DNA of 60,784 nt, from the NCBI GenBank assembly GCA_017829005.1, contig JAGAJF010000078.1, forward strand, positions 1 to 60,784, in the 5' to 3' direction. Below are positions 19,405 through 34,316 of the stretch, piece after piece; the stretch's first letter is position 1; each line of letters opens with the position of its first letter. The translations under genes and the position numbers were made by a program. The notes beneath the pieces were generated by a model. That model did not search any database and had not been told where the DNA came from. It worked only from the letters and a program-made list of their open reading frames with translations. This stretch comes from Oscillospiraceae bacterium (GTDB lineage Bacteria > Bacillota > Clostridia > Oscillospirales > Ruminococcaceae).

Positions 19405-20760
19405 ATGGATCTTGAAGAGATAGCAGGGCGCGAAATGCCCCACAGCGTTGAGGCGGAACAGACCGTTCTCGGCGCTGTGCTTATGGATTCGGAGCTTTTA
19501 GGCACGGTCATGAACTATGTCAAGCCCGAAAGCTTCTATGTTTCAAAGCACAGGCAGCTTTTTTCAATTATCATAAGGCTTTTTACCCTTGGCGTCAACT
19601 CGGACATCATCACCGTTCTGGACGAGGCTGTGAGAGAGGGGGTTTTCGAGGATTCGGGCTCGGGCAAGGAATATCTTGCCGCCATTATGGAGGGCGTTCC
19701 CACCCTTGCCAACATCGAAAGCTACTGCAAAATTGTCGAGGAGAAGTATTATCTCCGCTCCCTTGTTGAGGCTGCAAAGAGCATTATCGAAAACTGCACG
19801 GAAGCTTCCGAGCCTGCTTCGGTGATACTTGATTCCGCCGAGCAGATGATATATGACATCAGGCAGGGCAAGGAGGTTGACGGTCTTACTAAGGTGGACG
19901 AGGTGCTGCTTGACACCTACGATCACCTTAACCGCATTTCGGGCGTTGACAAGGAGAAATATCAGGGCGCTAAGTCAGGATATTCCGATCTGGATAACGT
20001 TATAAGCGGTCTGAACAAGTCCGACCTGCTTATTCTTGCTGCCCGTCCCGGTATGGGAAAGACCTCATTTGCGCTGAACATTGCCGCAAATGTGTGCAGG
20101 AGAAGCGTTGACAAGGAAGTCGTTGTTTTCTCTCTGGAAATGTCAAAGGAGCAGCTTGTTACCCGTATGCTGTCGGCGGAGAGCCTTGTGGACAGCGACC
20201 ACCTTATCAAGGGAAACATTGACGAGAAGGACTGGGAAAAGCTGGCTCAGGGCGCTGACAGAATGGCAGGTATGAATCTGTATCTTGACGATACGGCGGG
20301 CATTACCGTTGTGCAGATGAAGGCTAAGCTCAGACGTCTAAAAAACGTGGGGCTTGTTATCATCGATTATTTGCAGCTTATGAACTCAAGCAAGCGCACC
20401 GAAAACCGTGTTAACGAAATTTCCGATATTACAAGACAGTTAAAGCTCATGGCAAAGGAGCTTAATGTTCCCGTTATCACCCTTTCACAGCTTTCACGTT
20501 CCGTTGAGTCCCGTCCCGACAAGAGACCCTTGCTCTCAGACCTGCGTGAATCGGGTTCTATCGAGCAGGACGCGGATATCGTTATGTTCCTCTACCGTGA
20601 CGGCTATTACAACAAGGACAAGGTGGAGGATGTTAATCTGGCGGAATGTATCGTGGCGAAAAACCGTCACGGTGAGACGGGTACGGTAAATCTCAGGTGG
20701 AACGGTCAGTACACACTGTTCCTCAGCGAGGACAGACGGTTTGCGCCGTCGGGAAGCTGA
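19405..20760 (+). CDS. dnaB: Replicative DNA helicase DnaB
   Basis: DnaB is the hexameric helicase that unwinds DNA at the replication fork. The 451-aa protein has the N-terminal primase-interaction domain (MPHSVEAEQTVLGAVLMDSE), a linker, and the RecA-like motor with Walker A ARPGMGKTSFAL near residue 214, LVIIDYLQLM, SQLSRSVESRPDKRP and DLRESGSIEQDADIV. ATG 19405 follows AAGGTG, 9 bp after rplI. No intein interrupts it. Confidence 0.97.
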   Translation: MDLEEIAGREMPHSVEAEQTVLGAVLMDSELLGTVMNYVKPESFYVSKHRQLFSIIIRLFTLGVNSDIITVLDEAVREGVFEDSGSGKEYLAAIMEGVPTLANIESYCKIVEEKYYLRSLVEAAKSIIENCTEASEPASVILDSAEQMIYDIRQGKEVDGLTKVDEVLLDTYDHLNRISGVDKEKYQGAKSGYSDLDNVISGLNKSDLLILAARPGMGKTSFALNIAANVCRRSVDKEVVVFSLEMSKEQLVTRMLSAESLVDSDHLIKGNIDEKDWEKLAQGADRMAGMNLYLDDTAGITVVQMKAKLRRLKNVGLVIIDYLQLMNSSKRTENRVNEISDITRQLKLMAKELNVPVITLSQLSRSVESRPDKRPLLSDLRESGSIEQDADIVMFLYRDGYYNKDKVEDVNLAECIVAKNRHGETGTVNLRWNGQYTLFLSEDRRFAPSGS

Positions 20761-20761
20761 T

Positions 20762-22159
20762 ATGGGCGTTTGCGAGACCGTTCGTGAGACTGTTTCACGA
20801 TATGATATGATACCGAGGGGAAGCAGGGTAATTGCCTGCCTTTCGGGCGGGGCGGACAGCGTTTGTCTGCTGAGAGTCCTTGAAATGCTCCGAAATGACC
20901 TTGGATTTTCCCTTTATGCAGTTCACGTAAACCATTGTCTCCGTGGGGAGGAAAGCGACAGGGATATGCATTTCTGTGAGGAGCTTTGCAAGGGACTTGA
21001 TATCCCTCTGTCCGTTTATCACGTTGATGTGAAGGGTTATTGCGCCGAAAAGGGCACGTCCACCGAGGAGGGCGCACGTATTCTTCGGTACGGGGCTTTT
21101 GATACAGAGTCACAAAAGCTTGGCGGCGCACTTATTGCCACCGCTCACAACAAGGGGGACAACAGCGAGACTGTTATTTTTAACCTTGCTCGCGGCACGG
21201 GCATTCGTGGGCTTCGGGGCATTCCTCCCAAAAGGGACAGCATTATCCGTCCGCTACTTGGGGTCACGAGGGCGGAGATAGAGGATCTTCTTGAGACCTT
21301 GGGGCAGGATTTTGTGACGGACAGCACAAATCTTACCGAAGAGTATTCCCGAAATGTCATAAGGCACAGGGTGGTTCCCGTTCTTGAGGGAATAAACGGA
21401 AATTTTACCGAGGCTGTTTCCCGATTATCCGAAAGCGCCGCCGAGGACGAGGAGTATTTTGAAAAGCTTCTTGAAACTATTCCCCATAACGAGATTTGCG
21501 GATATCCCCCGTCGGTGCGGAAAAGATATATCAGAAAACTGCTGTCGGAGGCAAATGTCGAATGTTCCTATGAGCGGCTTTCAATCCTTGACGGTAAGAT
21601 GGTATCGGAAAAAAATGCAAAATACCAGCTTAAAGGAGATATATTTGCCGTATTTACGGGAGGCGTTATGGAGATAAAGCTGCTCCCGTCATATGACAAA
21701 ATTTCTTTTGAAAAACAGATAGATTTGTTGCATAATGACGAGATAGTCATTCCCGAATTTGATAAAACAGTGATAATTCGGAGATTTTGCAATGATATTT
21801 TGCAAAGGGGCGGCAATGTTCAAAGAAAATTAACAAATCACCTCGTAAGTTGTGATAAAATACAAGGTGTTGTTACTTTGCGAAACAAGCGTGACGGCGA
21901 CAGGATATGCTTTCATAACAGGGGAGTTACCACTAAGCTCAAAAAACACTTTAATGCCCTGAAGCTTTCCGAAAGAGAGCGAAATTCCGCTCTTGTGATG
22001 GAGGACGAGATGGGGATATTCTGGTGCGAATACGGCGGTGCGGCGGAAAGAGTTTTCCCCGAAAGTATTGCTTTCTCCCAAAGCACATCATGCTCCGAAA
22101 ATATATTTGAAATTTCAGTGAGAAAGACGGCGGATAATGATTACCGAGACTATAAATAA
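20762..22159 (+). CDS. tilS: tRNA(Ile)-lysidine synthase
   Basis: TilS attaches lysine to C34 of tRNA-Ile(CAU) using ATP, which switches the codon read from AUG to AUA. The PP-loop CLSGGADSVCLL is near residues 24-35, followed by HVNHCLRGEESDRD and TAHNKGDNSETV, then a mostly helical middle and a C-terminal TilS domain. Length 465 aa is typical. I start it at ATG 20762, one base after the dnaB stop; an in-frame TTG at 20741 would overlap dnaB. It overlaps hpt by 23 bp, the conserved tilS-hpt-ftsH arrangement. Confidence 0.93.
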   Translation: MGVCETVRETVSRYDMIPRGSRVIACLSGGADSVCLLRVLEMLRNDLGFSLYAVHVNHCLRGEESDRDMHFCEELCKGLDIPLSVYHVDVKGYCAEKGTSTEEGARILRYGAFDTESQKLGGALIATAHNKGDNSETVIFNLARGTGIRGLRGIPPKRDSIIRPLLGVTRAEIEDLLETLGQDFVTDSTNLTEEYSRNVIRHRVVPVLEGINGNFTEAVSRLSESAAEDEEYFEKLLETIPHNEICGYPPSVRKRYIRKLLSEANVECSYERLSILDGKMVSEKNAKYQLKGDIFAVFTGGVMEIKLLPSYDKISFEKQIDLLHNDEIVIPEFDKTVIIRRFCNDILQRGGNVQRKLTNHLVSCDKIQGVVTLRNKRDGDRICFHNRGVTTKLKKHFNALKLSERERNSALVMEDEMGIFWCEYGGAAERVFPESIAFSQSTSCSENIFEISVRKTADNDYRDYK

Positions 22160-22688
22160 CTACGGCTACAGCGGAATTAAGCGGGAGCTTTTTTCCGCCG
22201 CCGAAATTAAGGAAAAAATTGCCATTGCGGGCAGAAAAATTTCCGACGACTACAGAGGCAAGCCACTTTTGCTCATCAGCGTTCTCAAGGGTTCCTTCCT
22301 GTTCCTTGCAGACCTGTGCAGAGCGGTGGAGATACCCTGTGAGATAGGATTTATGTCCGCTTCAAGCTATGGAAACGGCACTGTTTCCTCGGGAAATGTG
22401 AAAATCACTCTCGACCTTGACAGGGATATTTCAAAATATCACGTGGTCATCGCCGAGGATATTATAGATACGGGCAGAACTCTCGCAAGCATCTGCGAGC
22501 TGCTTCGTGAGCGGCACCCCCTTTCCCTCAGCGTTTACACTCTTTTAGACAAGCCCTCTCGCCGTGAAGTGGATTTTTCGGCGGACTACAGCCTGTTTAC
22601 CGTTCCCGACCTGTTTGTGGTGGGCTACGGGCTGGACTGCGGGGAGAGGTTCAGAAACCTTCCCTATATTGCGGAGGCAGAGTTATAA
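22137..22688 (+). CDS. hpt: Hypoxanthine phosphoribosyltransferase
   Basis: Hpt salvages hypoxanthine and guanine to IMP and GMP using PRPP. The 183-aa protein carries the PRPP loop VVIAEDIIDTGRTL (about residues 103-116), the flexible-loop SASSYGNGTVSSG, and the substrate-binding VVGYGLDCGERFRNLPYI near the C-terminus. It starts inside the end of tilS (23-bp overlap), which implies translational coupling, and is followed by ftsH after 66 bp. Confidence 0.95.
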   Translation: MITETINNYGYSGIKRELFSAAEIKEKIAIAGRKISDDYRGKPLLLISVLKGSFLFLADLCRAVEIPCEIGFMSASSYGNGTVSSGNVKITLDLDRDISKYHVVIAEDIIDTGRTLASICELLRERHPLSLSVYTLLDKPSRREVDFSADYSLFTVPDLFVVGYGLDCGERFRNLPYIAEAEL

Positions 22689-22754
22689 TCTCAAAGGCGC
22701 ATTATTTTTACACACGGTGCGGTATCTCCCGTATCAAGAAAGGAAAATCAGCAG

Positions 22755-24737
22755 ATGAAAAAAGGCAGCGGTTTATTTATTTACATTATAATAGCCATTG
22801 TTCTCATGTTTTCAATGGTCTATTTCCTGAGACAGTCGTCTCAGCCAAAATCGGAATACACATATTCCCAGATAATGGAATATTTTGATAATTACGAGGT
22901 ATCAAAATACACCTTCGACCTGGGTACGGGCGAACTGGAAATGACAGTCAACACCGATGAGGGCAGCAAGGACATCAAGTACACTGTTCCCAATGTAAGC
23001 ATTTTCATTGACGAGATACAGTACGCTGACGGCGGCGAGGACAATTACCGTGAGGCTTACAACAAGCTCCACCCCGACGCTCCTCTCAGTCAGGAATACT
23101 ATAAGATACAGGACAACACCTGGCTTTACAACGTTCTCCCCTCTCTCGTTCTCATTATCCTTATGGTGGCGCTTTTCATCTTTATGATGAGACAGGCTGG
23201 GGGCGGCTCCAAGCTCAACAACTTCGGCAAGGCGAATATCAAAAATCAGTCCAAGAAGAAAAACACCTTCAAGGACGTGGCAGGCGCTGACGAGGAAAAG
23301 CAGGAGCTTGCCGAGATAGTCGATTTCCTTAAAAATCCCAAGAAATACAATGACATTGGCGCAAGAATACCCAAGGGCGTTCTTCTGATGGGACCTCCGG
23401 GTACAGGTAAGACCCTTCTTGCAAAGGCTGTTGCAGGCGAGGCAGGCGTTCCCTTCTTCTCAATTTCCGGTTCGGACTTCGTTGAGATGTTCGTGGGCGT
23501 GGGTGCAAGCCGAGTAAGAGACCTTTTTGAGACAGCTAAGAAGAATGCTCCCGCTATAGTTTTCATCGACGAGATCGACGCTGTTGGCCGTCAGAGAGGT
23601 GCAGGACTGGGCGGCGGTCACGATGAACGTGAGCAGACCCTTAACCAGCTTCTTGTTGAGATGGACGGCTTTGAGGGCAACGAGGGCGTTATCGTTATCG
23701 CTGCCACAAACAGACGTGATATCCTCGACCCCGCACTGCTTCGTCCCGGACGCTTTGACAGAGAGGTTATGGTGGGTTATCCCGATGTTAAGGGCAGAGA
23801 GGAAATTCTTAAGGTTCACGCAAAGAACAAGCCTCTTGCTCCCGATGTTGACCTCAAGGTCATTGCCAAGACTACTCAGCAGTTTACCGGTGCAGATCTT
23901 GAAAACCTTCTTAATGAGGCGGCTCTCCTTGCTGCTCGTCACGACAGACGGGCTATCACCGAGGAGGATATTGAGGAGGCTACTGTTAAGGTGGTTTCGG
24001 GTCCCGAGAAGAAGTCTCATCTTGTTACCGAAAGAGACAGAAGGATCACTGCTTACCACGAAGCAGGTCATGCTGTTGCGGCATATCACCTTAATGACGC
24101 CGAAAAGGTTCATATGGTAACTATCATTCCCAGAGGTGACGCAGGCGGATTTACAATGGTTCGTCCCGAAACCGATGACCAGTTCAAGACAAAAAATCAG
24201 CTTTTTGACAGGATCGTTCACGCAATGGGCGGACGGGTTGCCGAATCTCTTGTATTTGACGATATTACCTGGGGAGCTTCGGGAGACATCCAGCAGGCTA
24301 CAAGAACGGCTAAAATGATGGTCACCAGATGCGGATTCTCCGAAAAACTCGGTCCAATTGAATACGGCGGCAGCAATAATGAAGTATTTTTGGGCAGGGA
24401 TTACGGTCACACTCAAAATTTCAGCGAAGCTACAGCTGCTCTTATTGACGAGGAAGTTAAGAACATTATCAACAGCGCTTATAAAAAGTGCGAAGAGATC
24501 CTCAAGGCAAATATGAACCAGCTTAATGAGCTTTCCGAATATCTTCTTGAATACGAGAAGATCAACGGTGATGATTTCGACAAGCTTATGAAGGGCGAGC
24601 TCAAGTGGGAAAAGAACGAGAAGAAGCCCGATGATAAGGCTGACGAGACAGAAGAAAAGACAGAAGAGACTAAGGCTGAAGCTGAGGTTAAGGTTGAAGA
24701 AAAGTCCGAGGATAAGCCTGAGGATAACAAGGAATAA
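22755..24737 (+). CDS. ftsH: ATP-dependent zinc metalloprotease FtsH
   Basis: FtsH is a membrane-anchored AAA+ protease that degrades damaged membrane proteins and short-lived regulators. Two N-terminal membrane helices (about 7-24 and 123-143) flank an external domain. The AAA module has [14 protein letters not shown] near 213 and [11 protein letters not shown] near 268, and the SRH region [19 protein letters not shown]. The zinc site [11 protein letters not shown] begins near 435. About 50 acidic/lysine residues are appended at the C-terminus ([18 protein letters not shown]), probably disordered. An ATG start follows AGAAAGGAAA. Confidence 0.97.
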
Positions 24738-24741
24738 TTTC

Positions 24742-24774
24742 AAAGCTCTGAGCCGATTGGTTCGGAGCTTTTTT
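24742..24774 (+). terminator. Intrinsic terminator after ftsH
   Basis: A stem of about 13 bp (AAAGCTC with GAGCTTT, extended inwards with two G-T pairs) closes a GATT loop and is followed by a T-run. Confidence 0.85.
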
Positions 24775-24781
24775 ATGGCAG

Positions 24782-24819
24782 AAAAATGCCGCACATCACA
24801 AAATAATGATGTGCGGCAT
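24782..24819 (-). terminator. Intrinsic terminator after pflA
   Basis: A perfect 13-bp stem (24786-24798 with 24807-24819) has an 8-base loop; on the minus strand it is followed by ATTTTTC. It separates the convergent ftsH and pflA units. Confidence 0.85.
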
Positions 24820-24822
24820 AAA

Positions 24823-25590
24823 TTATTTGCTGTTTCGTTCAGCTATAAGTCCGTCCTTGATACCCTGCATTATAATATCCCTTGCCTTGACTGCTTCTTC
24901 CTTGGGAAGCGGTTCAACGTCTGCAAGAGCATAGTCAATACCGAGATTTTTGTACTTCACCTTGCCCATATCGTGATAGGGAAGGACATCAAGGGCTTTG
25001 ACGGATTTCAGTCCCGAGATAAACACGCCCAGCTCGTGGAGATATTTGTCGTTCTGAGTAAAGCCCGGAACGACCACGTGACGTATCCAAAGCTCCTTTT
25101 TCTTTGCGCTTGCGTATTTTGCAAAGGCAAGGATATTTTTGTTGCTCTGACCTGTGAGCTTCTTATGCTCCTCGTCGTCGATGTGCTTGATATCAAGCAT
25201 TATAACGTCGGTAACGTCCATAAGTCTGTCCACAGCTGCGGTATTTTCGGGATTAAAGGTGATGCCCGAGGTGTCGAGGCAGGTGTGTATGCCACGTGCC
25301 TTTGCCTTTTCAAAAAGCTCTGTAAGGAAGGGCAGCTGCGCCATTGGCTCGCCGCCTGTGCAGGTAATTCCGCCGCCTTTCAGAAACTCCTTCACGCCGT
25401 CGTACATATCAAGTATTTCCTCGGCGGTAACTGCCTTGCCCACCTCGTTTTTATCGGTGTGGAACTCCCATGTGTCGGGATTGTGGCAGTAAAGGCACCT
25501 CATTGGACATCCTTGGAAAAAGACGACGAACCTGATACCGGGTCCGTCGACTGTTCCGAACGATTCAGTTGAATGAATGAAGCCGTTCAT
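24823..25590 (-). CDS. pflA: Pyruvate formate-lyase activating enzyme
   Basis: PflA is the radical SAM enzyme that abstracts a hydrogen from the conserved glycine of pyruvate formate-lyase to make the glycyl radical. The 255-aa protein opens with HSTESFGTVDGPGIRFVVF and the cluster-binding CPMRCLYCHNPDTWEF (CxxxCxxC), followed by GGGITCTGGEPMAQ and DVLPYHDMGKVKY. It lies 12 bp downstream of the separate glycyl-radical domain gene. Activase and radical domain are thus made from the same message, and the catalytic body is encoded just upstream. Confidence 0.96.
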   Translation of the reverse strand: MNGFIHSTESFGTVDGPGIRFVVFFQGCPMRCLYCHNPDTWEFHTDKNEVGKAVTAEEILDMYDGVKEFLKGGGITCTGGEPMAQLPFLTELFEKAKARGIHTCLDTSGITFNPENTAAVDRLMDVTDVIMLDIKHIDDEEHKKLTGQSNKNILAFAKYASAKKKELWIRHVVVPGFTQNDKYLHELGVFISGLKSVKALDVLPYHDMGKVKYKNLGIDYALADVEPLPKEEAVKARDIIMQGIKDGLIAERNSK

Positions 25591-25602
25591 AAGCTGCAGG
25601 GA

Positions 25603-25845
25603 TTACAGGGAAGCGTGGAATGTTCTGGAGATAACGTCGTCCTGCTGCTCCTTGGTGAGCTTGATGAAGTTTACAGCGTATCCGGATACACGGATAGTGA
25701 GCTGGGGATAGTTCTCGGGGTGCTTCTGAGCATCCAGGAGAGTATCTCTTGTGAACACGTTAACGTTGAGGTGGTGGCCGCCCTTGACTGCATAACCGTC
25801 AAGAAGACCTACGAGGTTGTTTATCTGCTGTGCATTTGCTGCCAT
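25603..25845 (-). CDS. Stand-alone glycyl-radical domain of pyruvate formate-lyase (GrcA-like)
   Basis: This 80-aa protein is the C-terminal domain of pyruvate formate-lyase as its own gene. [10 protein letters not shown] carries the radical glycine (G55), with 25 residues after it, the same distance as after G734 of E. coli Pfl[11 protein letters not shown] and [18 protein letters not shown] match the region just before it in full-length PFL. It resembles E. coli GrcA (YfiD), which rescues oxygen-cleaved PFL, but here the neighbouring PFL gene lacks this domain altogether, so it is probably an obligate subunit. The start is ATG 25845 behind AAAGGAG. pflA follows. Confidence 0.9.
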
Positions 25846-25907
25846 AGTAAAAACTCCTTTCAAAACAGGTTAAATTATACTCGGTTAGTGTACTTTCTAT
25901 ACGCTAA

Positions 25908-25923
25908 ATATAACACAGAAATG
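25908..25923. promoter_or_regulatory. Inverted repeat upstream of the radical-domain gene
   Basis: The 6-bp arms AACACA and TGTGTT are separated by GAAA. The repeat lies upstream of a minus-strand TATAAT near 25873-25878, where an operator for a second promoter could act. It is not a recognisable Rex site. Confidence 0.35.
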
Positions 25924-25937
25924 TGTTCTTTTTATGC

Positions 25938-25973
25938 CGACAGTCTTAATATTTTGTAAAGACTGTCGGCTAA
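25938..25973 (-). other. Strong hairpin between the two PFL genes
   Basis: A perfect 12-bp stem (GCCGACAGTCTT with AAGACTGTCGGC, plus an extra A-T region in the loop) lies between the catalytic-body gene and the radical-domain gene. The bases after it on the minus strand are A-rich, not T-rich, so it does not look like a standard terminator. It may protect or process the upstream message and set different levels of the two subunits. Confidence 0.55.
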
Positions 25974-26004
25974 AAGCTTATGTTAGGATAGAGCAGTATG
26001 TCAA

Positions 26005-28056
26005 TTACTTAGCAAGAGCGTCGATATCGAGGTCGCCAACGAATACGCCGCCGTCCTTACCGAGTGCGTCGGGAATGATGGAGAAGGTATTGGAGATACC
26101 GTCCTGTGCGTTGGAGAACTGGAGCTTGGATACAGAAGAGAGAGATGCGGAAGCACCGTGAGTATCTCTGCCGTGCATGGGGTTAGCACCGGGAGCAAGA
26201 GGCACACCGAGCTTACGTCCGTCGGGTGTGGAGCCTGTCTTCTTACCGTATACAACGTTGGAAGTGATTGTAAGGATAGAAGTTGTAGGCAGACCGTTTC
26301 TGTATGTGTGCTGCTGACGGATCTTGTTCATAAATCTGTTGAGGATATCCTCAGCGATCTCGTCAACACGGTCATCATCGTTGCCGTACTTGGGGAAGTC
26401 ACCCTCGATCTCGTAATCAACAACAATACCCTGCTCGTTTCTGATGGTCTTGACCTTAGCATACTTGATAGCGGAGAGGGAGTCTGCTACAACGGAGATG
26501 CCTGCGATACCTGTTGCGAAGTATCTCTTTACCTCTCTGTCGTGAAGAGCCATCTGGAGGCTCTCGTAGCAGTACTTGTCGTGCATATAGTGAATGATGT
26601 TGAGGGTGTTTACATAGAGCTCTGCGAGCCATGTCATCATATCATCATACTTCTCCATAACCTCATCATAATCAAGGTACTCGGAGGTGATGGGTCTGAA
26701 CTTGGTAGCAACCTGAACGCCGCTGATCTCGTCTACGCCGCCGTTGATAGCGTAAAGGAGGCACTTAGCAAGGTTTGCTCTTGCGCCGAAGAACTGCATT
26801 TCCTTGCCGACTCTCATGGAGGATACGCAGCAAGCGATAGCATAGTCATCGCCGTGAGTTACTCTCATAAGGTCATCGTTCTCGTACTGAATGGAAGATG
26901 TGTTGATGGAGATCTTTGCGCAATATGCCTTCCAGCCGGCGGGAAGTCTTGTGGACCAGAGAACGGTCATATTAGGCTCGGGAGATGTGCCCAGATTCTC
27001 GAGAGTATGGAGGTAACGGAAGCTGGTCTTAGTAACCATATGTCTGCCGTCAATGCCCATACCGCCAAGAGACTCTGTTACCCACTGGGGGTCGCCGGAG
27101 AAGAGTGCGTTATACTCGGGTGTTCTTGCAAATCTTACAAGACGGAGCTTCATAATGAAGTGGTCGATAAGTTCCTGAGCCTGCTCCTCAGTAATTCTGC
27201 CCAGCTTGAAGTCTCTCTCGAAGTAGATATCGAGGAATGTGGATGTACGTCCCAGGGACATTGCTGCGCCGTTCTGATCCTTAACTGCGCCCAGGTAGCC
27301 GAAGTATACAGCCTGAACTGCTTCCTTTGCTGTGGTTGCGGGCTTGGATATGTCGCAGCCGTAGATCTCTGCCATCTTCTTGAGGTTCTCGAGCGCTCTG
27401 ATCTGCTCTGCGATCTCCTCTCTTGCGCGGATCTTTTCCTCGGTCATGGGGCAGGTGTAGAAAGCCTTCTGCTCCTTCTTGTCCTCGATAAGTCTGTCAA
27501 CGCCGTACAGAGCAACACGTCTGTAGTCGCCGATGATTCTTCCTCTTCCGTATGCGTCGGGAAGACCTGTGAGGATATGAGCGGTTCTTGCAGCTCTCAT
27601 TTCGGGTGTATATACATCGAATACGCCTGCGTTATGAGTCTTGCGGTATTCGGTGAAGATGTGCTTGATCTCGGGGTCGATGGTGTAGCCGTTGTCGGAG
27701 CAAGCCTTTTCAGCCATTCTCAGACCGCCGTAGGGCATAAGTGCTCTCTTGAAGGGCTTATCTGTCTGGAGACCAACGATCTGCTCCAGATCCTTTTCAA
27801 TATAGCCTGCGCCGTGGGATACGAGAGAGGATACTACCTTGGTATCCATATCGAGAACGCCGCCTGCTTCTCTTTCCTTCTTTGCAAGCTCCATTACGTC
27901 AGCCCAGAGCTTTTTGGTAGCCTCTGTGGGGTCTGCAAGGAAGCTTTCGTCGCCGTCATAGGGAGTGTAGTTTCTCTGGATAAAGTCACGGACATTGATC
28001 TCCTTTGTCCACTGACCGCCCTTGAAGCCTTCCCATTCCTGTGGCATCTGATTCAT
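26005..28056 (-). CDS. pflB: Pyruvate formate-lyase catalytic body, lacking the glycyl-radical domain
   Basis: Pyruvate formate-lyase converts pyruvate and CoA to acetyl-CoA and formate. The 683-aa protein contains the substrate-binding barrel and the active-site Cys pair C409-C410 in [20 protein letters not shown]. It ends after [17 protein letters not shown] and [16 protein letters not shown] with a short new tail ([13 protein letters not shown]) and a stop, about 75 residues before a normal PFL would end. The missing glycine domain is the separate 80-aa gene 159 bp downstream; together they give 763 residues against about 760 in E. coli. I place the start at ATG 28056 ([11 protein letters not shown]) behind AAGGAGGA; the upstream in-frame extension is leader. 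Confidence 0.95.
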
Positions 28057-28168
28057 AATTGTTTTTCCTCCTTCAATCTTTCGCACCGCCCTTATGAGGC
28101 TGTGCGAAGCTATCTTCTGTGCTGTCCTTATGGGACGCACAAAGCTAAAAAGTATGTAGAATATGCCG

Positions 28169-28192
28169 TTATGTGCAAATAAATGCACATAA
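28169..28192. promoter_or_regulatory. Perfect 9-bp inverted repeat in the pfl upstream region
   Basis: TTATGTGCA (28169-28177) and TGCACATAA (28184-28192) are separated by 6 bases. The form TGTG-N10-CACA recalls Crp/Fnr-family operators, though the spacing is 2 bases longer than the E. coli CRP site. It may regulate an inner pfl promoter or act in RNA as a hairpin. Confidence 0.45.
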
Positions 28193-28278
28193 AATTTTAT
28201 AGCAGACCTCAGAAAATTATGCTTTTAACATAAATGAGATCCGATAAACTATACTCAATCGGTATCATTTTAATACCC

Positions 28279-28319
28279 AAAAAAACAGACCTTTTTGCCT
28301 TTCGGCAGAGGATTCTGTC
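28279..28319 (-). terminator. Early terminator in the pfl leader
   Basis: On the minus strand, ACAGA and TCTGT close a hairpin that contains an inner CCT/AGG pairing and a TGCC-GAAA-GGCA stem, followed by seven T. It lies only about 50 bases after the predicted transcription start, so it either attenuates the pfl transcript or ends a small RNA. Confidence 0.65.
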
Positions 28320-28341
28320 CACTCTATTCAGCTTCATTATT

Positions 28342-28370
28342 ATAATACAACATATGCACACATTTGTCAA
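28342..28370 (-). promoter_or_regulatory. Sigma-A promoter upstream of pfl
   Basis: On the minus strand TTGACA (28365-28370), a 17-bp spacer and TATTAT (28342-28347) form a strong promoter with a predicted start near 28335. Confidence 0.8.
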
Positions 28371-28424
28371 GTGGTTTTTATGGTATTTTGGCAATTTTCA
28401 TAAAAAATTGACCTGTATTTCACC

Positions 28425-28457
28425 GAAAACAACAGCCGCCGATACGAGATCGGCGGC
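28425..28457 (-). terminator. Terminator after the giant repeat-protein gene
   Basis: A perfect 9-bp GC-rich stem (28435-28443 with 28449-28457) has a 5-base loop; the minus-strand tail is TGTTGTTTTC. Confidence 0.8.
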
Positions 28458-28481
28458 ATTTGGTTTATTTACGCATAAACT

Positions 28482-31400
28482 TTAGTGAACCAGCTTGTTT
28501 CCGCACTCTGCGCAGAACTTTGCAGTTTCGCTGGTGATCTTAGCTCCGCACTGGTCGCAGAACTTGATCTTGGGCTTTGCAGGCTCGGCAGGTTTTACGG
28601 GTGCTGCAGGCTGTACGGGCTTTGCAGGCTCAAAAGGCTTAACAGGTGCAGCGGGCTGTACGGGCTTTGCAGGCTCGGCAGGCTTAACGGGTGCAGCAGA
28701 CTGTACGGGCTTTGCAGGCTCAGAAGGCTTTACAGGTGCAGCGGGCTGTACGGGCTTTGCAGGCTCGACAGGCTTTGCGGGTGCAGCGGGCTGTACAGGC
28801 TTTGCAGGCTCGGCGGGCTTTGCGCTCTCGATAGGCTTGATGGGCTTGACCTCGGGAATTGGCGAGACTACGACCTCAATAGGCTTGATGGGCTTGATAG
28901 GCTCGGGCTTCTTCTCGGGAACAGGCTCCTTCTTTTCGGGAACAGCCTCCTTCTTCTCATGATTGGGAGCTGCGGCAGCCTTTTCAGCTTCCTCGGCTCT
29001 CTTTCTTGCCTCTTCGATGTCCTTGCGCTCCTGCTCAAGCTCCAGAAGTTTTGCTTCCTCGGCAGCCTTGATCTCCTCGGCTTCCTTGAGCTTTGCGTCG
29101 GTCTTGGATTTCTGGATAGCGGCAAGAACGCCGTTTAATACCTTTGCAGTGGCTTCAAAAAGCTTCTTTTCGATATTGGCTGGAAGCTCTGTTGCTTTTC
29201 CGCCTCTTTCGATGACCTTGAGCGATGCACCGAACAGACCTCCCTTGCCCTCAAATCTCTCGATCTGATCAACAGGGATATGGAGCAGACCGCTGGTCTT
29301 GCCCATTCCGTAAAGGAAGTTTGTGGTGAGCAGGTAGGAGTCCTCGGGATGACCCGGAGTAAATTCGTGTGCCACAACAGGCAGCTCGAACTGCTCTGTT
29401 CTTGCATATGTGTTCTGTATCTTCACATAAATGCTCTCAAAGGACTTGGAAATTCCGGGGATATAGAACTGAGACTCTCTGATGTTGTTCTCGTCCATAA
29501 GCTTTTTGAGAAGCTGTACGTAGCCGTCTCTCTCCATAGTCTTGAGATTTGTGATATGAAGCTCGACCTGAGTGATAAAGCGCTTTCTGTTATCCTCGTC
29601 GATATCCATTTCATTGATATCCTTAATAAGCTCGAAGCTGCGGTGTTCCCCTGCATTGCCGAGATTTTTGCACTTTTCCGCAAGGATATTGGCTTCTGCC
29701 TCGCGTATCTTGGATCTCACTCTGCCGATGTATCTCTGGAGCATATCATCGGAAGCGTGATTTTCATTCTTAGTGATTTTCTCAAGGAGAACGATAAGGT
29801 CTGCACGGCTCATAGAATTGATATTCTCGGTGAGCTTTGAATAATACTGGACCTGAAGATTTGTGACAGCATCGTCGATCTTCTTGATGTAGGGGAAGGT
29901 CACCTCGGGTATGAAATCGCCCTCGGATATCTTCTCCTTGATCTCGGAAAGCTTCTTGATATCATGCTTTGAAATATCGCCGCATAGCTTGTCAAGCTCT
30001 TCCTTCTGGAGGAATTCTCTGCGCTCCTTGAGCTTTGCTGCGGAAGCCTCGTAAAGCTTTGGGTCAAGGGCAGGCTTGCGCTTATCAAGCTCGTCCTCGA
30101 ATTTATCAAGCTCCTCTGCAGTCAGCTTCTCGATAGATGCCATCTGCTTGTCAAACTCAGCCTTGTCGATCTGCTTGAGACGGCTCTCGATCTGCTCGGC
30201 ATATGCCTTGCCCGGCTCCTTGTATTCGGGAGTTTCGCTGATAGCTATCTTCATGCTCATCAGCTTATCCTTGGGAGCGCTCTGGATATTCTTGCACAGG
30301 TCTGCAAGCTCCTGCTTGATAAGGGTCTCGGTGCGCTCGTCTATCTGCTTGATGTACTTAGCGGAAAGCTCCTTGTCGAATTCTCCGCTTGAAAGAGCCT
30401 CTCTGAGCTTGGAAAGCTCCTTTCTGGGTGTGGTGGCGATATTCTTGCAGAGACTCTCCATTTCGGACTTCATAAGAGCAATTTCCTTGCTTCTGATCTT
30501 TTCCAGATAAGAAGCGGTGTTCTCCTTCTTGAAGCCCAGAGCGGCGATATCTGCGGAAAGCTTTTCAAGCTCGGGCTTTTTAAGCTTTTCAATGTCCTTA
30601 CACATTGCGTCAAGCTTGTCGGTCTCGATCTTGTTGAAGCGCTTTTCGATGTCGTCAAAATATTTCTTAACATATGCAGGGTCGAACTTCTCGTCTTTGA
30701 GCTTTTCGGTAAGAGAAGCAAGCTCGGGCTTCTGCATATTTGCGATATTCTTGCACAGGTCGTCGGCTTCCTTGTTGTAAAGAGCCTTTCTGCGTGCCTT
30801 GATGGTGTCGAAATAGCCCGATGTAAGCTCCTCGGGGTACTTGTCGTCCTTAAGGGCTTTCTCAAGAGCGTCAAGCTTTGCAAAGTCCATAGAGGGGATA
30901 TCCTTGCACAGCTCGGAAAGCTCTGCCTTGAGGAGAGCTTTTGCCCTTTCCTCGGTCATGGGAAGATACTTCTTTGCAATATCCTCGGGGCACTTTTCAG
31001 CCTTGAGTTCTTCTATTATCTTGTCAAGGTCAGCCTTGTTCATCTGAGGAATGGTGTCGCACTTCTTGATGAATTCGGCATTCTTTATCTCGGTCTCACG
31101 CTCGTCAAGCTGAGACTTGTACTTGTCGGTAAGAGCGGCAGGATATTTTGCGGAGGCGATAACGGCTCTGAGACTGTCTATCTTTGCCTTGTCCGCAGTC
31201 TTTATGCCTGCAAAAATGCCCTCCACTTCCTTGGCAAGTATCTCCTGCTTTCTTGCGGCGATGTCCTTTTTGTAGGGAGCCTTGAGAGCCTCGCGGCACT
31301 TTACGGCATCAAGCTTTGAAAGCATATCATCGAGAGCCTTGTTGTCGGCTTCGGAAATGCCCTTGCACATTGCGGTAAGCTCTTCTCTTGCAAAGCTGTC

Positions 31401-33191
31401 TCTTGCTCCTGCTATCTTTGCGGTAAAGTGACGGGTGAACATCTTGTCATACTTGCCCGATGCAAGCACCTTTTCAAGCTCGTCAGCCTTTGCCTTGTCG
31501 GGGATAGACTTGAACATTTCCGAAAGTGCTTTCAGCTGAGCGGTGAGGACAGCGTCCTTTACCTGAGCGATATAAGGAGCGGCAACCACCTCGTCAAAGG
31601 AAGAATCGGAAATTTTGCCCAGAATAACGTCAAGCTCTTCCTGTGTTTTGAGAGTAAGGCCCGTGCAGAGGAGCTTCAGCTGATTTTCCTCGCAGTTATT
31701 CATTGCAAGCTTTATTTTCAGCAGATATTTGCCCGTTGTTTTCTTATCGAGCTTCATATCATAGATGTATTTGCGAAGCTGCTTGAGCTCATCTGCATCA
31801 AGTGCCGAAAGGTCGGAGCATTTATCTGCAAGCTCAGCCTCGTTCTTCACAGCCTTTTCCATATCGGCAACGGTGTCGAATACTGTACCGTTATAGGTGC
31901 GTGCGGCGATCTCGTATTCCTTGCAGTATGTATCAAGCTCCTCAAAAACGGGAGCGTTTTTCAGCTTGTATTTTGCAGCGGCAGCCTTGATATCCTCGGA
32001 GATAAGAGCGGCTCTTGCGCCTGCGCAGTTAAGCTTGCCCTCTGCGTCACGGCAGTCGGCAGGGATATAGGACTCAGCCAGATATTTGCCAAGCTCTGCA
32101 GGTGTGAGAGCAGAGCTGTTCCAGAACAGGGAGATGTTCTCAACAGCCTCGGCGTCGGCAGGAGAAGCGGCTCTTGCCATATTGAACACCGCAGGATATG
32201 CGGGACGCACTCTGAGCAGAGCGGCAATGTCCTTTTTAAGCTCCTCGGGAGAAGCTGTGGAAAGCTCAGCTGCCTTTAAGCCGTCGGCAAATTTCTCCTT
32301 GTCGGGAGCGCTGTACTTAAAGCCATAGCTGTTCTTTTCGGAAACAAGCTTTCTGAATTTCTCCTTGAGAGCGGCAGTATCGTCGGAAGTGTATTCCTTT
32401 TCGTCAACAGAAACACCGCACTTCTTGCCAAGCTTAACAAAAAGCTTTGCGGTATATGCCTTTAAATCGAAATCTATATCTGCGGACTTGAATGCAGCTG
32501 CATGAGGCTCCATATCCTTTACGAGCCTGTCGCAGAGCTGTACGCCTCTGTCAAGCTCCTTGCAGCGGGATTCGTTCTTGTCACAGGAAATTTTCGTGCC
32601 GAATATCTCAAACTCGGTCTCGCCGATTATCTCGGGAGAAACCACCTCGGATATAAGCTCGTCAAGATAGCCCTCGGTCTTTTCCGCAACGTCCTTGTCG
32701 GAAAGCACCGCAGGCTCCTCGGGAGTACCTTTTTTATAAAGGAAATGGTTTGTAAGCTTCTTAAAGGGCTGGATAACGTTTGTAAGAGGGGTAACGGGAG
32801 CGTAGGGCTTTCCCTCTTTCTTCATATGCTCCTCGCTGATGATGAGGGTGTCGTGCTTGCCGTCGATCATCCAGTCCTCGGCTTCAAATGCGCCGTCAAA
32901 AAGGAGAGTGGCAATGTAAACCTTGCCGTTCTGAGCGGCTATATTTCTTGCCTCGGCTATTTTAAAAGGCTCAAAGCTGTCCCCGTCGGCGGACATAAGG
33001 AGCATATCGGACATACGGCATATGTCAACGCTGTTGCTCTTAGCCTCCTCCTGAGAGCAGGGAACGTAGATGACCCCATCAAGAAAAGGGTGACAGAAAA
33101 GCCGTCCGGCAGTGAAATACTTGTCGGTAAATTCGGCTCTGAACTCTGTGCAGGCAGCTTTGAAGCGGCTGTAATCCCTAAAAATTTCCAC
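28482..33191 (-). CDS. Giant helical-repeat protein with PH-like region and C-terminal zinc ribbon
   Basis: I do not recognise this 1569-aa protein as a named family. Order: a globular N-terminal region (about 1-400); about fifteen degenerate units of ~50 residues (about 450-1200) built on ELxxLCKxI...L..L...L........Y...I..R, for example AELSELCKDIPSMDFAKLDA; a beta-rich segment that could be a bacterial PH-like domain (SYLLTTNFLYGMGK, GLFGASLKVIERGG); a charged coiled coil; a Pro/Lys/Ala linker with five 15-residue KPxEPAKPVQPAAPV repeats; and a zinc ribbon (FCDQCG and FCAECG). No signal peptide or membrane helix is visible, so it is probably cytoplasmic. The start is GTG 33191 behind GGGAGG. 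It is a single-gene unit with its own promoter and terminator. Confidence 0.85.
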   Translation of the reverse strand: MEIFRDYSRFKAACTEFRAEFTDKYFTAGRLFCHPFLDGVIYVPCSQEEAKSNSVDICRMSDMLLMSADGDSFEPFKIAEARNIAAQNGKVYIATLLFDGAFEAEDWMIDGKHDTLIISEEHMKKEGKPYAPVTPLTNVIQPFKKLTNHFLYKKGTPEEPAVLSDKDVAEKTEGYLDELISEVVSPEIIGETEFEIFGTKISCDKNESRCKELDRGVQLCDRLVKDMEPHAAAFKSADIDFDLKAYTAKLFVKLGKKCGVSVDEKEYTSDDTAALKEKFRKLVSEKNSYGFKYSAPDKEKFADGLKAAELSTASPEELKKDIAALLRVRPAYPAVFNMARAASPADAEAVENISLFWNSSALTPAELGKYLAESYIPADCRDAEGKLNCAGARAALISEDIKAAAAKYKLKNAPVFEELDTYCKEYEIAARTYNGTVFDTVADMEKAVKNEAELADKCSDLSALDADELKQLRKYIYDMKLDKKTTGKYLLKIKLAMNNCEENQLKLLCTGLTLKTQEELDVILGKISDSSFDEVVAAPYIAQVKDAVLTAQLKALSEMFKSIPDKAKADELEKVLASGKYDKMFTRHFTAKIAGARDSFAREELTAMCKGISEADNKALDDMLSKLDAVKCREALKAPYKKDIAARKQEILAKEVEGIFAGIKTADKAKIDSLRAVIASAKYPAALTDKYKSQLDERETEIKNAEFIKKCDTIPQMNKADLDKIIEELKAEKCPEDIAKKYLPMTEERAKALLKAELSELCKDIPSMDFAKLDALEKALKDDKYPEELTSGYFDTIKARRKALYNKEADDLCKNIANMQKPELASLTEKLKDEKFDPAYVKKYFDDIEKRFNKIETDKLDAMCKDIEKLKKPELEKLSADIAALGFKKENTASYLEKIRSKEIALMKSEMESLCKNIATTPRKELSKLREALSSGEFDKELSAKYIKQIDERTETLIKQELADLCKNIQSAPKDKLMSMKIAISETPEYKEPGKAYAEQIESRLKQIDKAEFDKQMASIEKLTAEELDKFEDELDKRKPALDPKLYEASAAKLKERREFLQKEELDKLCGDISKHDIKKLSEIKEKISEGDFIPEVTFPYIKKIDDAVTNLQVQYYSKLTENINSMSRADLIVLLEKITKNENHASDDMLQRYIGRVRSKIREAEANILAEKCKNLGNAGEHRSFELIKDINEMDIDEDNRKRFITQVELHITNLKTMERDGYVQLLKKLMDENNIRESQFYIPGISKSFESIYVKIQNTYARTEQFELPVVAHEFTPGHPEDSYLLTTNFLYGMGKTSGLLHIPVDQIERFEGKGGLFGASLKVIERGGKATELPANIEKKLFEATAKVLNGVLAAIQKSKTDAKLKEAEEIKAAEEAKLLELEQERKDIEEARKRAEEAEKAAAAPNHEKKEAVPEKKEPVPEKKPEPIKPIKPIEVVVSPIPEVKPIKPIESAKPAEPAKPVQPAAPAKPVEPAKPVQPAAPVKPSEPAKPVQSAAPVKPAEPAKPVQPAAPVKPFEPAKPVQPAAPVKPAEPAKPKIKFCDQCGAKITSETAKFCAECGNKLVH
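28570..28830. repeat. Direct repeats of 45 bp encoding the Pro/Lys-rich linker
   Basis: About five tandem 45-bp units sit inside the giant-protein gene, each encoding a 15-residue KPxEPAKPVQPAAPV block with single changes (S, F, A or V at the variable site). Copy number of such repeats commonly varies between strains. Confidence 0.8.
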
Positions 33192-33314
33192 AGTTGATTC
33201 CTCCCGTTTGTAAACTTCCGTCCCGTTTTGACGGGGACGGAGCTTATTTTTCTTCTCAGCGTTATTAGCCCCATAAACCGTTAAAAAGGGCTTTTACCGC
33301 ATCATATTATTAAC

Positions 33315-33343
33315 ATTATAACAAAAAAAAGGAAGTATGTCAA
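33315..33343 (-). promoter_or_regulatory. Perfect consensus promoter of the giant repeat-protein gene
   Basis: On the minus strand TTGACA (33338-33343), a 17-bp spacer and TATAAT (33315-33320) lie about 125 bases upstream of the GTG start. The leader contains a GC-rich hairpin near 33218-33245. The rest of 33344-33475 is AT-rich with no gene seen. Confidence 0.88.
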
Positions 33344-33475
33344 CGTGAAGTTAGAGTATTTTATACAAAAATATTTTCAATTCATTTTGGTGGTTTTGCA
33401 TAATGGGGTTTTATTCAAGACAAAAGTTCGAATAACCAAATGTAATTCAGAAGTAATATTGTAACCGAATTGTAA

Positions 33476-33504
33476 TTGACATTTTTTGCAGAAATAGGTA
33501 TAAT
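33476..33504 (+). promoter_or_regulatory. Perfect consensus promoter of the type I toxin gene
   Basis: TTGACA (33476-33481), 17 bp, TATAAT (33499-33504). The predicted start near 33511 would begin the RNA with a small hairpin, GGTAC-ATA-GTACC. Confidence 0.88.
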
Positions 33505-33555
33505 AAATGCGGTACATAGTACCGAAGCAGCCTAACGGCAGGCGGCGTGTCTCTT

Positions 33556-33586
33556 CTTTCCCTTACAAATCCATATGGGAAGGAGG
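33556..33586 (+). promoter_or_regulatory. Hairpin sequestering the toxin ribosome-binding site
   Basis: CTTTCCC (33556-33562) can pair with GGGAAGG (33577-33583, one G-T pair), which hides most of the strong ribosome site AAGGAGG (33580-33586). Such translation-blocking leaders are common in type I toxin mRNAs. Confidence 0.6.
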
Positions 33587-33595
33587 TGCATATGT

Positions 33596-33694
33596 ATGTC
33601 AATACTCGAAATCTGTGCGTTGTCAGCACTTATTGTTGACATAATACGCCTTATCATAGATGTACTTGAATACAGACGCAATAAAAAAGACTGA
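33596..33694 (+). CDS. Small hydrophobic peptide, probable type I toxin (holin-like/TxpA-Fst type)
   Basis: A 32-residue peptide MSILEICALSALIVDIIRLI followed by IDVLEYRRNKKD: a single membrane helix (about residues 5-25) followed by a short charged, basic tail, the layout of Fst/TxpA and the so-called putative holin-like toxins of Firmicutes. These insert in the membrane and are silenced by an antisense RNA. The start ATG 33596 has AAGGAGGTG at 7-base spacing; an ATG at 33592 is in another frame. Supporting context: its own consensus promoter, a leader that hides the ribosome site, overlapping terminator hairpins, and a convergent consensus promoter for an antisense RNA. Confidence 0.75.
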   Translation: MSILEICALSALIVDIIRLIIDVLEYRRNKKD

Positions 33695-33720
33695 CCGCCC
33701 AAGTCGCACCTTGAGCGGTC
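33693..33720. terminator. Bidirectional terminator hairpin shared by toxin and antitoxin RNAs
   Basis: GACCGC (33693-33698) pairs with GCGGTC (33715-33720), extended inwards by CAAG/CTTG. On the minus strand it is followed by AGTCTTTTTT, a good terminator; on the plus strand the tail is weaker (GTTTCC). Confidence 0.75.
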
Positions 33721-33756
33721 GTTTCCTAACATCACGTTAGTGACATAATCTCGTAC

Positions 33757-33788
33757 AAGGAGCACGCCGTATGCAAGGCTGCTTCCTT
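33757..33788 (+). terminator. Second 3' hairpin of the toxin mRNA
   Basis: AAGGA/TCCTT, GCA/TGC and GCC/GGC form a stem with two small bulges, followed by TTATTTTC. Its GGCTGCTTC (33777-33785) is the exact complement of GAAGCAGCC in the toxin leader (33524-33532), which could allow a 5'-3' closed, inactive mRNA. Confidence 0.6.
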
Positions 33789-33795
33789 TATTTTC

Positions 33796-33824
33796 AGTAT
33801 AACATATCACTGCTGATTTGTCAA
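33796..33824 (-). promoter_or_regulatory. Promoter of the antisense antitoxin RNA
   Basis: On the minus strand TTGACA (33819-33824), a 17-bp spacer and TATACT (33796-33801) face the toxin gene. Confidence 0.8.
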
Positions 33825-33853
33825 GTTGTTCACAGCTTATTATTTATAATTTT

Positions 33854-33877
33854 AGCCTTCTTCGCAAGAAGAAGGCT
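33854..33877. terminator. Hairpin between the toxin locus and the tRNA genes
   Basis: A perfect 10-bp stem (33854-33863 with 33868-33877) with a GCAA loop. It lies just downstream of tRNA-His on the minus strand; tails on both strands are only moderately T-rich, so it may act as a weak terminator or a 3' stabilising stem. Confidence 0.55.
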
Positions 33878-33883
33878 ATTTTG

Positions 33884-33961
33884 TGGGGTGGGAGATGGGA
33901 TTCGAACCCACGATCTTCGGGACCACAATCCGACGCTTTAACCAGCTAAGCTACACCCACC
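33884..33961 (-). tRNA. tRNA-His (anticodon GTG)
   Basis: A full cloverleaf: D-arm TAGCTTAGCTGG, anticodon loop TTGTGGT, T-arm GGGTTCGAATCCC, encoded CCA, and the extra G at -1 typical of tRNA-His pairing with C73. One acceptor pair (6-67) reads T-T. It is the last of three tRNAs on this strand. Confidence 0.93.
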
Positions 33962-34079
33962 ATATAAAATGTAACATCGTTTTGGATGTTACATAAAATA
34001 CGTTCCCATATGCAGAAGCCCGGGAACTACCGGAAAATGAAACAGTACAGCAAAGCTGCTGTACGGCTTCGGAAGAAAT

Positions 34080-34156
34080 TGGCGCGTCTTACTGGATTCG
34101 AACCAGTGGCTTACTGCTTAGAAGGCAGTTACTCTATCCAGCTGAGTTAAAGACGC
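34080..34156 (-). tRNA. tRNA-Arg (anticodon TCT)
   Basis: Acceptor stem GCGTCTT with AAGACGC, anticodon stem-loop CTGCCTTCTAAGCAG, T-loop GGTTCGAATCC and encoded CCA. It reads AGA/AGG codons, which are well used in this genome. Confidence 0.94.
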
Positions 34157-34185
34157 ATATATATAACCCCGATAACCGGGGATTG

Positions 34186-34259: not shown

Positions 34260-34316
34260 AGATGAGGGGGTGTCACAAAAGGTGCATTTCGGTACTCACC
34301 TCAAGTGACGTTTTAT

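What the first reader, a model, noticed from the sequence alone, without database searches (positions are those of the whole stretch)
25603..28056. Pyruvate formate-lyase encoded as two separate subunits
The 683-residue gene contains the active-site Cys pair (409-410) but stops just where the glycyl-radical domain should begin. That domain is a separate 80-residue gene 159 bp downstream, with the radical glycine in RVSGYAV and exactly the family number of residues after it. In E. coli, GrcA is a spare part for oxygen-damaged full-length PFL; here no full-length PFL is visible, so the radical domain looks obligatory. This would make a two-chain glycyl-radical enzyme whose oxygen-sensitive part can be replaced cheaply, and pflA follows in the same transcript. 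The junction sequences are new tails rather than a frameshift scar: a 13-residue extension and MAANAQQ.
Basis: partly seen in the sequence, partly recalled or inferred. Interest (0 to 1): 0.8.

Follow-up and report, generated by a model that had tools for sequence, protein, structure and literature searches.

The report
Pyruvate formate-lyase split into subunits
Many gut bacteria appear to build a key fermentation enzyme from a large body and a separate small chain that carries its oxygen-sensitive radical, usually with a third, undescribed cysteine-bearing small protein encoded between them.

Summary
A 683-aa PFL body (Cys409-Cys410) is followed by an 80-aa gene with the radical glycine (Gly55) and then pflA. 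Stops and a Shine-Dalgarno-like site separate the two. No full-length PFL was found in the genome (93.7% complete); its other glycyl-radical gene is nrdD.

It is not a one-off. Of 119 genomes of the GTDB family, 18 have the split form, 51 the full-length form, none both. Forty split bodies fall on one side of a branch, 33 full-length PFLs on the other. All 80 named loci kept from a small-gene search carry it as a separate gene.

Two things go beyond the finding. Most split operons hold a third gene (58 of 79): its start resembles the radical subunit's docking segment, its end has a C-x(3-6)-AC-xx-P motif. It was found only in split genomes; where it is absent the body's tail usually has cysteines. 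Solitary extra radical genes often lie near Crp/FNR-type regulators. The window's genome shows neither.

NCBI already names the small protein GrcA3. No paper was found. Enzymology is untested.

The parts
28342..28370 (-). sigma-70-like promoter TTGACA-17-TATTAT upstream of the operon
   Evidence: 11 of 12 consensus matches; but only 3 such sites found in the region against 4.7 expected, so a pattern match only; a similar TTGACAAAT...TTGTATTATA stretch lies upstream in L055
26005..28056 (-). PFL body subunit, 683 aa, without the glycyl-radical loop
   Evidence: TIGR01255 1-667/744, 1113.8 bits; PF02901 748.7 bits
26827..26832 (-). codons of the catalytic Cys409-Cys410 pair
26008..26055 (-). new C-terminal tail [16 protein letters not shown] after ALGK667; VFxGDLDI core recurs in many split bodies
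25936..25970 (-). 12-bp stem-loop in the body-small gap; gaps of the same branch (L016, L032, L055) also fold into strong stem-loops of different sequence
   Evidence: no clear T run after it
25854..25860 (-). Shine-Dalgarno-like AAAGGAG before the small gene
25603..25845 (-). glycyl-radical subunit, 80 aa (NCBIfam NF038360 'GrcA3')
   Evidence: 163.3 bits, cut-off 158
25681..25683 (-). codon of the radical glycine, Gly55 in RVSGYAV
   Evidence: aligned to E. coli PFL and YfiD
24823..25590 (-). pflA, PFL-activating radical SAM enzyme, 255 aa
   Evidence: TIGR02493 289.5 bits, cut-off 231.75
24786..24819 (-). terminator-like stem-loop after pflA
   Evidence: 14 pairs, then TTTTCTGCCA; 12 terminator-like sites found against 3.1 expected

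Best explanation
It is a pyruvate formate-lyase made of two obligatory chains. The 683-aa body supplies the barrel, the substrate site and the Cys409-Cys410 pair; the 80-aa chain supplies the glycyl-radical loop. PflA puts the radical on Gly55 of the small chain, whose helix-plus-strand segment docks on the body so that Gly55 sits next to Cys410; catalysis is then ordinary PFL chemistry. When oxygen breaks the small chain at the glycine, the broken chain can leave and a new one bind, with no damaged stub of the body in the way. Shown by sequence: the gene layout, the motifs, no full-length PFL found, one origin of the sampled split forms, mutual exclusion with full-length PFL. Inferred: assembly, activation, activity and exchange of the small chain.
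For: Body and small gene together cover the whole PFL model. No full-length PFL found in the genome. 18 of 119 family genomes split, 51 full-length, 0 both. Of 37 further genomes with the small gene none has a full-length match over the cut-off; 28 have a body over it, 7 have body fragments, 2 (G538, G547) show no body. All 18 small genes compared have an ATG behind a purine-rich SD-like stretch, gaps 22-303 bp; body and small gene share a frame in only 4 of 18. 46 of 80 residues are invariant in 18 small proteins, RVSGYAV wholly. Small genes: median dN/dS 0.05 and 0.06 (131 of 153 and 40 of 91 pairs usable). 40 split bodies on one side of a branch, SH-aLRT 99, against 33 full-length. For E. 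coli, a passage of PMC8683613 ([quoted passage not shown]
Against: No expression, EPR or enzyme data. The genome is 93.69% complete. In E. coli the same kind of truncation is harmful: the abstract of PMC8683613 says that truncation of residues 696-733 prevents YfiD rescue, and the text reports weaker binding and lower activation; two-chain assembly is therefore not automatic, and the split proteins must differ in some way. pflA was found within 600 bp after the small gene in only 46 of 79 loci (a motif regex), so one body-small-pflA transcript is not universal.
Confidence: 0.87

Rival explanations
1. The small protein is a GrcA/YfiD-type spare part that rescues an oxygen-cleaved full-length PFL, as its NCBI name GrcA3 suggests.
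For: NF038360 over its cut-off; resembles YfiD residues 66-127. Some genomes have an extra solitary copy near Crp/FNR-type regulators, which may be a true spare, but for a split PFL.
Against: No full-length PFL found in this genome; of 51 family genomes with full-length PFL none has a free small gene, apart from a 33-residue remnant in G112. No N-terminal extension of about 60 residues as in YfiD: 9 residues precede NLVGLLDGY.
Confidence: 0.06
2. Frameshift, assembly error or decaying pseudogene.
For: Body and small gene lie in the same frame in the window.
Against: Five stops between them, an SD-like site before the small gene, a separate small gene in 80 of 80 named loci with a body on the same strand found in 61 of them, including R. 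bicirculans 80/3 chromosome II and R. albus KH2T6; purifying selection on small genes.
Confidence: 0.01
3. The two parts are joined by stop-codon read-through into one chain.
For: Same frame here and in L020, L025, L030.
Against: Only 4 of 18 loci share the frame, about what chance gives; several stops of different kinds lie in the window's gap.
Confidence: 0.01
4. The enzyme of most relatives is three-part: the Cys-bearing third protein (or the Cys tail of the body) is needed as well, and the window's genome keeps it on a missing contig or has replaced it.
For: Third gene in 13 and Cys tail in 4 of 18 split genomes of the family; G111 keeps its third gene on another contig. Third gene in 0 of 101 other family genomes; in the phylum draw of 398 only G340, itself split, has it.
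Against: No such gene was found in the window's genome (only the radical gene's own start, E 0.008), and its body has no Cys tail; L032 also lacks both in the operon.
Confidence: 0.35

Closest known systems
Pyruvate formate-lyase PflB with PflA (E. coli; TIGR01255, PDB 1h16)
   Same: Same body family and Cys pair, same RVSGYAV loop and distance to the C-terminus, PflA encoded next to it.
   Different: In E. coli one 759-residue chain; here cut between K667 and the next helix into two genes, each with a new tail; no duplicated segment was seen.
GrcA/YfiD and phage T4 Y06I spare parts (TIGR04365, PDB 6owr)
   Same: Free-standing glycyl-radical domain of similar sequence (97.5 bits to TIGR04365, below its cut-off 170).
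   Different: No long N-terminus; carries about 10 more residues of the docking helix, which do not align to YfiD; no full-length PFL found to repair; operonic with the body.
NCBIfam NF038360 'autonomous glycyl radical cofactor GrcA3'
   Same: The small protein is a member by score (163.3 vs cut-off 158).
   Different: The name implies a spare part; the genomic evidence says obligatory subunit. The third gene is not covered: 10 of 29 members match it at E <= 0.01, the best E being 2.5e-5, and the five matches whose positions were shown lie at the model's start (2-32, one 4-49).
PDB 38la and 38lb 'Formate acetyltransferase' (2026 copy)
   Same: Closest solved chains to the body (1128 and 1144 bits vs 991 for E. 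coli); 38la (687 residues) ends at or one residue after ...LGKE, 38lb continues ALGKSGNVMFGECDM... like split bodies; neither appears in the small-chain search.
   Different: Titles, organisms and partner chains could not be seen; 38la may be a native body or an engineered truncation. They suggest that others hold structures of such bodies.

Membership tests
Pyruvate formate-lyase (TIGR01255) | PFL body over the curated cut-off with catalytic Cys-Cys pair | tested here: met
   1113.8 bits vs 994.2; Cys409-410
Pyruvate formate-lyase (TIGR01255) | Glycyl-radical motif RVSGYAV about 25 residues from the C-terminus | tested here: met
   Gly55 of 80 in the small chain; aligned to E. coli
Pyruvate formate-lyase (TIGR01255) | Both parts in one polypeptide | tested here: not met
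   two genes, five in-frame stops between; hence 'split variant'
Pyruvate formate-lyase (TIGR01255) | Dedicated activase PflA | tested here: met
   TIGR02493 289.5 bits, 12 bp downstream
Pyruvate formate-lyase (TIGR01255) | Pyruvate + CoA to formate + acetyl-CoA via a glycyl radical | not testable with these tools
   needs enzyme assay and EPR
GrcA/YfiD spare part | Free-standing glycyl-radical domain | tested here: met
   80-aa ORF, PF01228 50-106
GrcA/YfiD spare part | Coexists with a full-length PFL that it repairs | tested here: not met
   none found in G000; 0 of 18 split family genomes; 0 of 37 genomes have a full-length match over the cut-off
GrcA/YfiD spare part | Long disordered N-terminal half (YfiD 1-60) | tested here: not met
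   9 residues before NLVGLLDGY in 80 aa; the YfiD fact is from PMC8683613 passages
NF038360 GrcA3 | Score over the curated cut-off of 158 bits | tested here: met
   163.3 bits

The most novel reading that the evidence does not exclude
The split enzyme is a three-part machine. The undescribed third protein copies the radical subunit's docking segment (helix and strand) and carries a two-cysteine tail where the radical loop would be. It docks at the radical subunit's place on the body when that subunit is away (being activated by PflA, or destroyed by oxygen), so that it caps the open barrel and meets the active-site cysteines, as a redox-sensitive placeholder. Where the body's own tail carries the cysteines, that tail does the same job. 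The window's branch has shed it.
Probability: 0.3. Interest if true: 0.85.

Novelty: new variant of a known kind. Interest (0 to 1): 0.72.

Why it matters
PFL makes formate and acetyl-CoA from pyruvate in many anaerobic gut and rumen bacteria (established knowledge). If its radical chain is a separate, exchangeable subunit, oxygen damage costs the cell an 80-residue chain instead of a large enzyme. It would also give a natural system in which radical installation, docking and radical transfer can be studied with separate chains, which in the E. coli work seen here was done with engineered truncations (PMC8683613). The third protein would be a new accessory of a textbook enzyme. Annotation should call GrcA3 a subunit, not a spare part, in these genomes.

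Tried and rejected
Frameshift or assembly error: rejected. Spare part for a full-length PFL: not supported for this genome and the sampled split genomes. Read-through: rejected. Second PFL: the C114 hit is NrdD/NrdG. Rfam on 20000-35000: only three tRNAs.

Literature: ten searches showed nothing on a split PFL or GrcA3. Limits: the library holds open-licence PMC papers only, no preprints; two queries were far too broad (358 papers, 20 seen, mostly split GFP; 8,693 papers, 15 seen). No search used words for the third gene, which has no name. Passages only were read of PMC8683613, PMC12338860, PMC9403272, PMC4034769 and PMC7478625; all other papers were seen as listings.

Rows dropped or odd: the first fold alignment A2 was misaligned and replaced by A4/A5. 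The strict third-gene regex (50 third, 16 tail, 13 neither of 79) missed eight third genes visible (L021, L023, L076, L081, L083, L093, L110, L114) and one Cys tail (L077); added by eye, the counts are 58, 17, 0 both, 4 neither. Of the four, L095 is unresolved (its gap was mis-measured) and L097 has pflA in the gap; window and L032 remain. The tail regex asks only for two cysteines close together: L018, L096 and L113 pass it but lack the following proline. L107 was not among the 79 (regex) and was scored as tail by hand. One search lists the longest ORF per gap, in L059, L073 and L088 a wrong-frame one; one search gives the right one. For one search only 40 of 77 split bodies were used. In one search the short open frames of G316 and G145 are fused PFLs cut by an N run or a contig end; G320 was not resolved. 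In one search the three query regulators come from three of the thirteen solitary loci, which therefore match by construction.

Full report
What is in the window. On the minus strand lie a 683-aa PFL body (26005-28056), an 80-aa glycyl-radical gene (25603-25845) and pflA (24823-25590), between a promoter-like site at 28370 and a terminator-like stem-loop at 24819 (promoter-like sites are no more frequent here than in shuffles). The body matches TIGR01255 positions 1-667 and the small protein 664-744 of 744. The catalytic pair is Cys409-Cys410; the radical glycine is residue 55 of 80, followed by 25 residues as in E. coli. The cut lies inside Pfam PF01228: positions 2-49 are in the body, 50-106 in the small chain. 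Body and small gene share a reading frame, but five stops (the body's own included) lie between them and the small gene has AAAGGAG before its ATG.

No other PFL found. In the window's genome (2.88 Mb, 93.69% complete) PF02901 hits only this body, and PF01228 hits only these two genes and one more locus, which is anaerobic ribonucleotide reductase NrdD beside NrdG.

Survey of the family. TIGR01255 was searched in 119 genomes of the GTDB family, of 118 genera. 69 have a match over the cut-off: 18 end at model position 663-677 and have a separate match for the rest nearby; 51 run to the end of the model (one of them, G046, begins at 57, near a contig end). No genome has both. G067, G024, G076 and G049 hold fragments below the cut-off; other weak matches are mostly other glycyl-radical enzymes. 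G112 has a full-length PFL and a 33-residue remnant copy of its C-terminus. All 18 split pairs have the small gene downstream of the body on the same strand with an ATG behind an SD-like stretch, gaps 22-303 bp, and only 4 of 18 share the frame.

Beyond the family. In all 80 the match lies in a short separate frame; a body on the same strand was found in 61, the other 19 are either cut by a contig end or solitary. By record title they include Ruminococcus bicirculans 80/3 (chromosome II), R. albus KH2T6, a R. flavefaciens MAG, many Lachnospiraceae, and MAGs labelled Gastranaerophilales, Spirochaetales and Erysipelotrichaceae; MAG labels may be mis-binned. These 80 were chosen by the small gene, so they say nothing about how common the split is. 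In an even draw of 398 genomes of the phylum, 2 passed the GrcA3 cut-off, G000 and G340, so in that draw the split is rare. In 37 genomes searched whole (36 from named loci, plus G340), none has a full-length match over the cut-off; 28 have a body over it, 7 only body fragments, 2 no body seen; several also hold other, lower-scoring glycyl-radical enzymes.

One origin. A maximum-likelihood tree of the body region (40 split, 33 full-length, 652 columns, quick method) puts all split bodies on one side of a branch with SH-aLRT 99; the nearest full-length rows are G512 and G337 of other families. No re-fusion was seen, but the split rows from outside the family were picked by their small gene. The wide taxonomic spread suggests horizontal transfer; this was not tested.

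A third gene. In most split operons the gap between body and small gene holds another ORF of 60-88 aa. Its alignment (29 sequences, A3) has a helix-like DDLVxMLD, a strand-like GHxNV and a tail TDC-x(3-6)-AC-xx-P[TN]; invariant are one Gly, two Cys and one Pro. Its start matches the start of the radical subunit over 31 columns in profile comparison (95.2% probability, E 2.7e-8), and 10 of 29 members match GrcA3 at E <= 0.01. No Pfam family matches any of 29 at E <= 0.01, and no PDB chain matches the one member searched. It looks coding: median dN/dS 0.12 (45 of 153 Lachnospiraceae-type pairs usable) and 0.24 (47 of 91 Ruminococcus-type pairs usable; the other pairs were left out, mostly for saturation), with 61% and 50% of differences at third codon positions.

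Third gene or Cys tail. Of 79 loci with body and small gene adjacent, 50 have the third gene by strict regex and 16 have two close cysteines in the body's own tail (such as CENGACFSPT, CPSCANIPN, CACCVPN; three of them without the proline), none both, 13 neither; with loci read by eye the counts are 58, 17, 0 and 4 neither (window, L032, L095 unresolved, L097 with pflA in the gap). On the tree, third-versus-tail needs at least 9 changes among 37 rows (some states set by hand), so one state has replaced the other many times, as expected of equivalent parts. In the 119 family genomes the third gene (match past model position 50) occurs in 13, all split; 4 other split genomes have the tail; only the window's genome shows neither. 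None of 101 non-split genomes has it. In G111 (L032) it sits on a different contig. In the phylum draw only G340, itself split, has it at E <= 1e-6. Of the 37 genomes, 25 have a full third-gene match, each on the same contig as a small gene and close to it; the 12 without include six labelled Gastranaerophilales.

Spare copies. 18 of the 37 genomes have a second small gene on another contig; the set was picked partly for solitary copies, and in G550 both copies sit behind body fragments. Thirteen solitary loci with enough flank were examined: 10 have a Crp/FNR-type regulator ORF within the locus, in 8 of them directly beside the small gene, against 0 of the other 67 named loci. Three of the ten supplied the query; the other 67 lie elsewhere in the genome and some are cut short, so this is an association, not a matched control. 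Five regulators were checked with Pfam. L058 also has desulfoferrodoxin, rubrerythrin and thioredoxin genes. In 12 genomes where two small proteins were compared they are 88-99% identical, and in ten pairs solitary and operonic copies do not form two classes, so the extra copy should fit the same body. This supports, without proving, a regulated stock of radical chains in those genomes. The window's genome has a single copy.

How it most likely works. From E. coli work (PMC8683613, abstract and passages): oxygen cleaves PFL at Gly734; YfiD replaces the radical domain; [quoted passage not shown] residues 696-733 are seen as a recognition element; activation of YfiD needs the PFL partner. PMC12338860 (passages) has the radical pass from GrcA to Cys419 of PflB. 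The split enzyme would make the two-chain state the normal one, so it must have solved the assembly problem of the E. coli truncation. The third protein or Cys tail may be part of that: a recognition or placeholder element at the docking groove. Docking, capping and redox roles are inference; no structure could be predicted.

What is known. NCBI's NF038360 names the small protein 'autonomous glycyl radical cofactor GrcA3'. PDB chains 38la and 38lb, both 'Formate acetyltransferase', are the nearest solved chains to the body and look like bodies without radical loop; their titles were not visible, so a group may already be on this. Ten paper searches showed no description of a split PFL or of GrcA3, in a library of open-licence papers only and with two of the queries too broad to be read through.

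Verdict. The finding is real and its interpretation is supported. The split alone is a widespread variant of PFL, apparently of one origin, that annotators have half noticed. The third gene and the solitary copies near regulators make it more interesting than the finding claimed, though the window's own genome shows neither.

Noticed in passing
L017, L019, L070, L117 and others, gap between body and small gene (e.g. L070:4270-4476 +): Undescribed 60-88-aa gene with a radical-subunit-like start and a two-cysteine tail, found only in split-PFL genomes among those searched.
   Followed up: yes
L058:4501-4740, L084:4489-4731, L098:4501-4740, L125:4501-4737, L080:4495-4731: Second, solitary glycyl-radical genes near Crp/FNR-type regulators; L058 also near desulfoferrodoxin, rubrerythrin and thioredoxin genes.
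   Followed up: partly
L179:3095-3298 (-): In G111 the third gene lies on another contig than the pfl operon.
   Followed up: partly
L097, gap between body and small gene: A pflA-like gene lies between body and radical gene instead of after them.
   Followed up: no
L033:4274-4372 (+): Remnant copy of the last 33 or so residues of PFL downstream of an intact full-length PFL (G112).
   Followed up: no
window 28057-28160 (-): Leader of the body gene holds two similar tandem stem-loops (GTGCGTCCCATAAGGACAGCAC and GCACAGCCTCATAAGGGCGGTGC); no Rfam match at gathering score.
   Followed up: partly
window 25936-25970 (-): Strong stem-loop in the body-small gap; L016, L032 and L055 have different strong stem-loops there; may set the ratio of body to small-chain mRNA.
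   Followed up: partly
L193:1866-2087, L194:1613-1999, L197:1815-2072, L198:1793-2062: Another small protein (IDEVIKMLDxxTxxxVSRIKVE...YHHGRCDVGSPFA) in four genomes that hits the third-gene profile weakly, in other neighbourhoods.
   Followed up: no
window 28482-33191 (-): 1569-aa ORF with a proline-rich PAKPVQPAAPVKP repeat array ending in a zinc-ribbon-like CDQCGAKI...CAECG.
   Followed up: no
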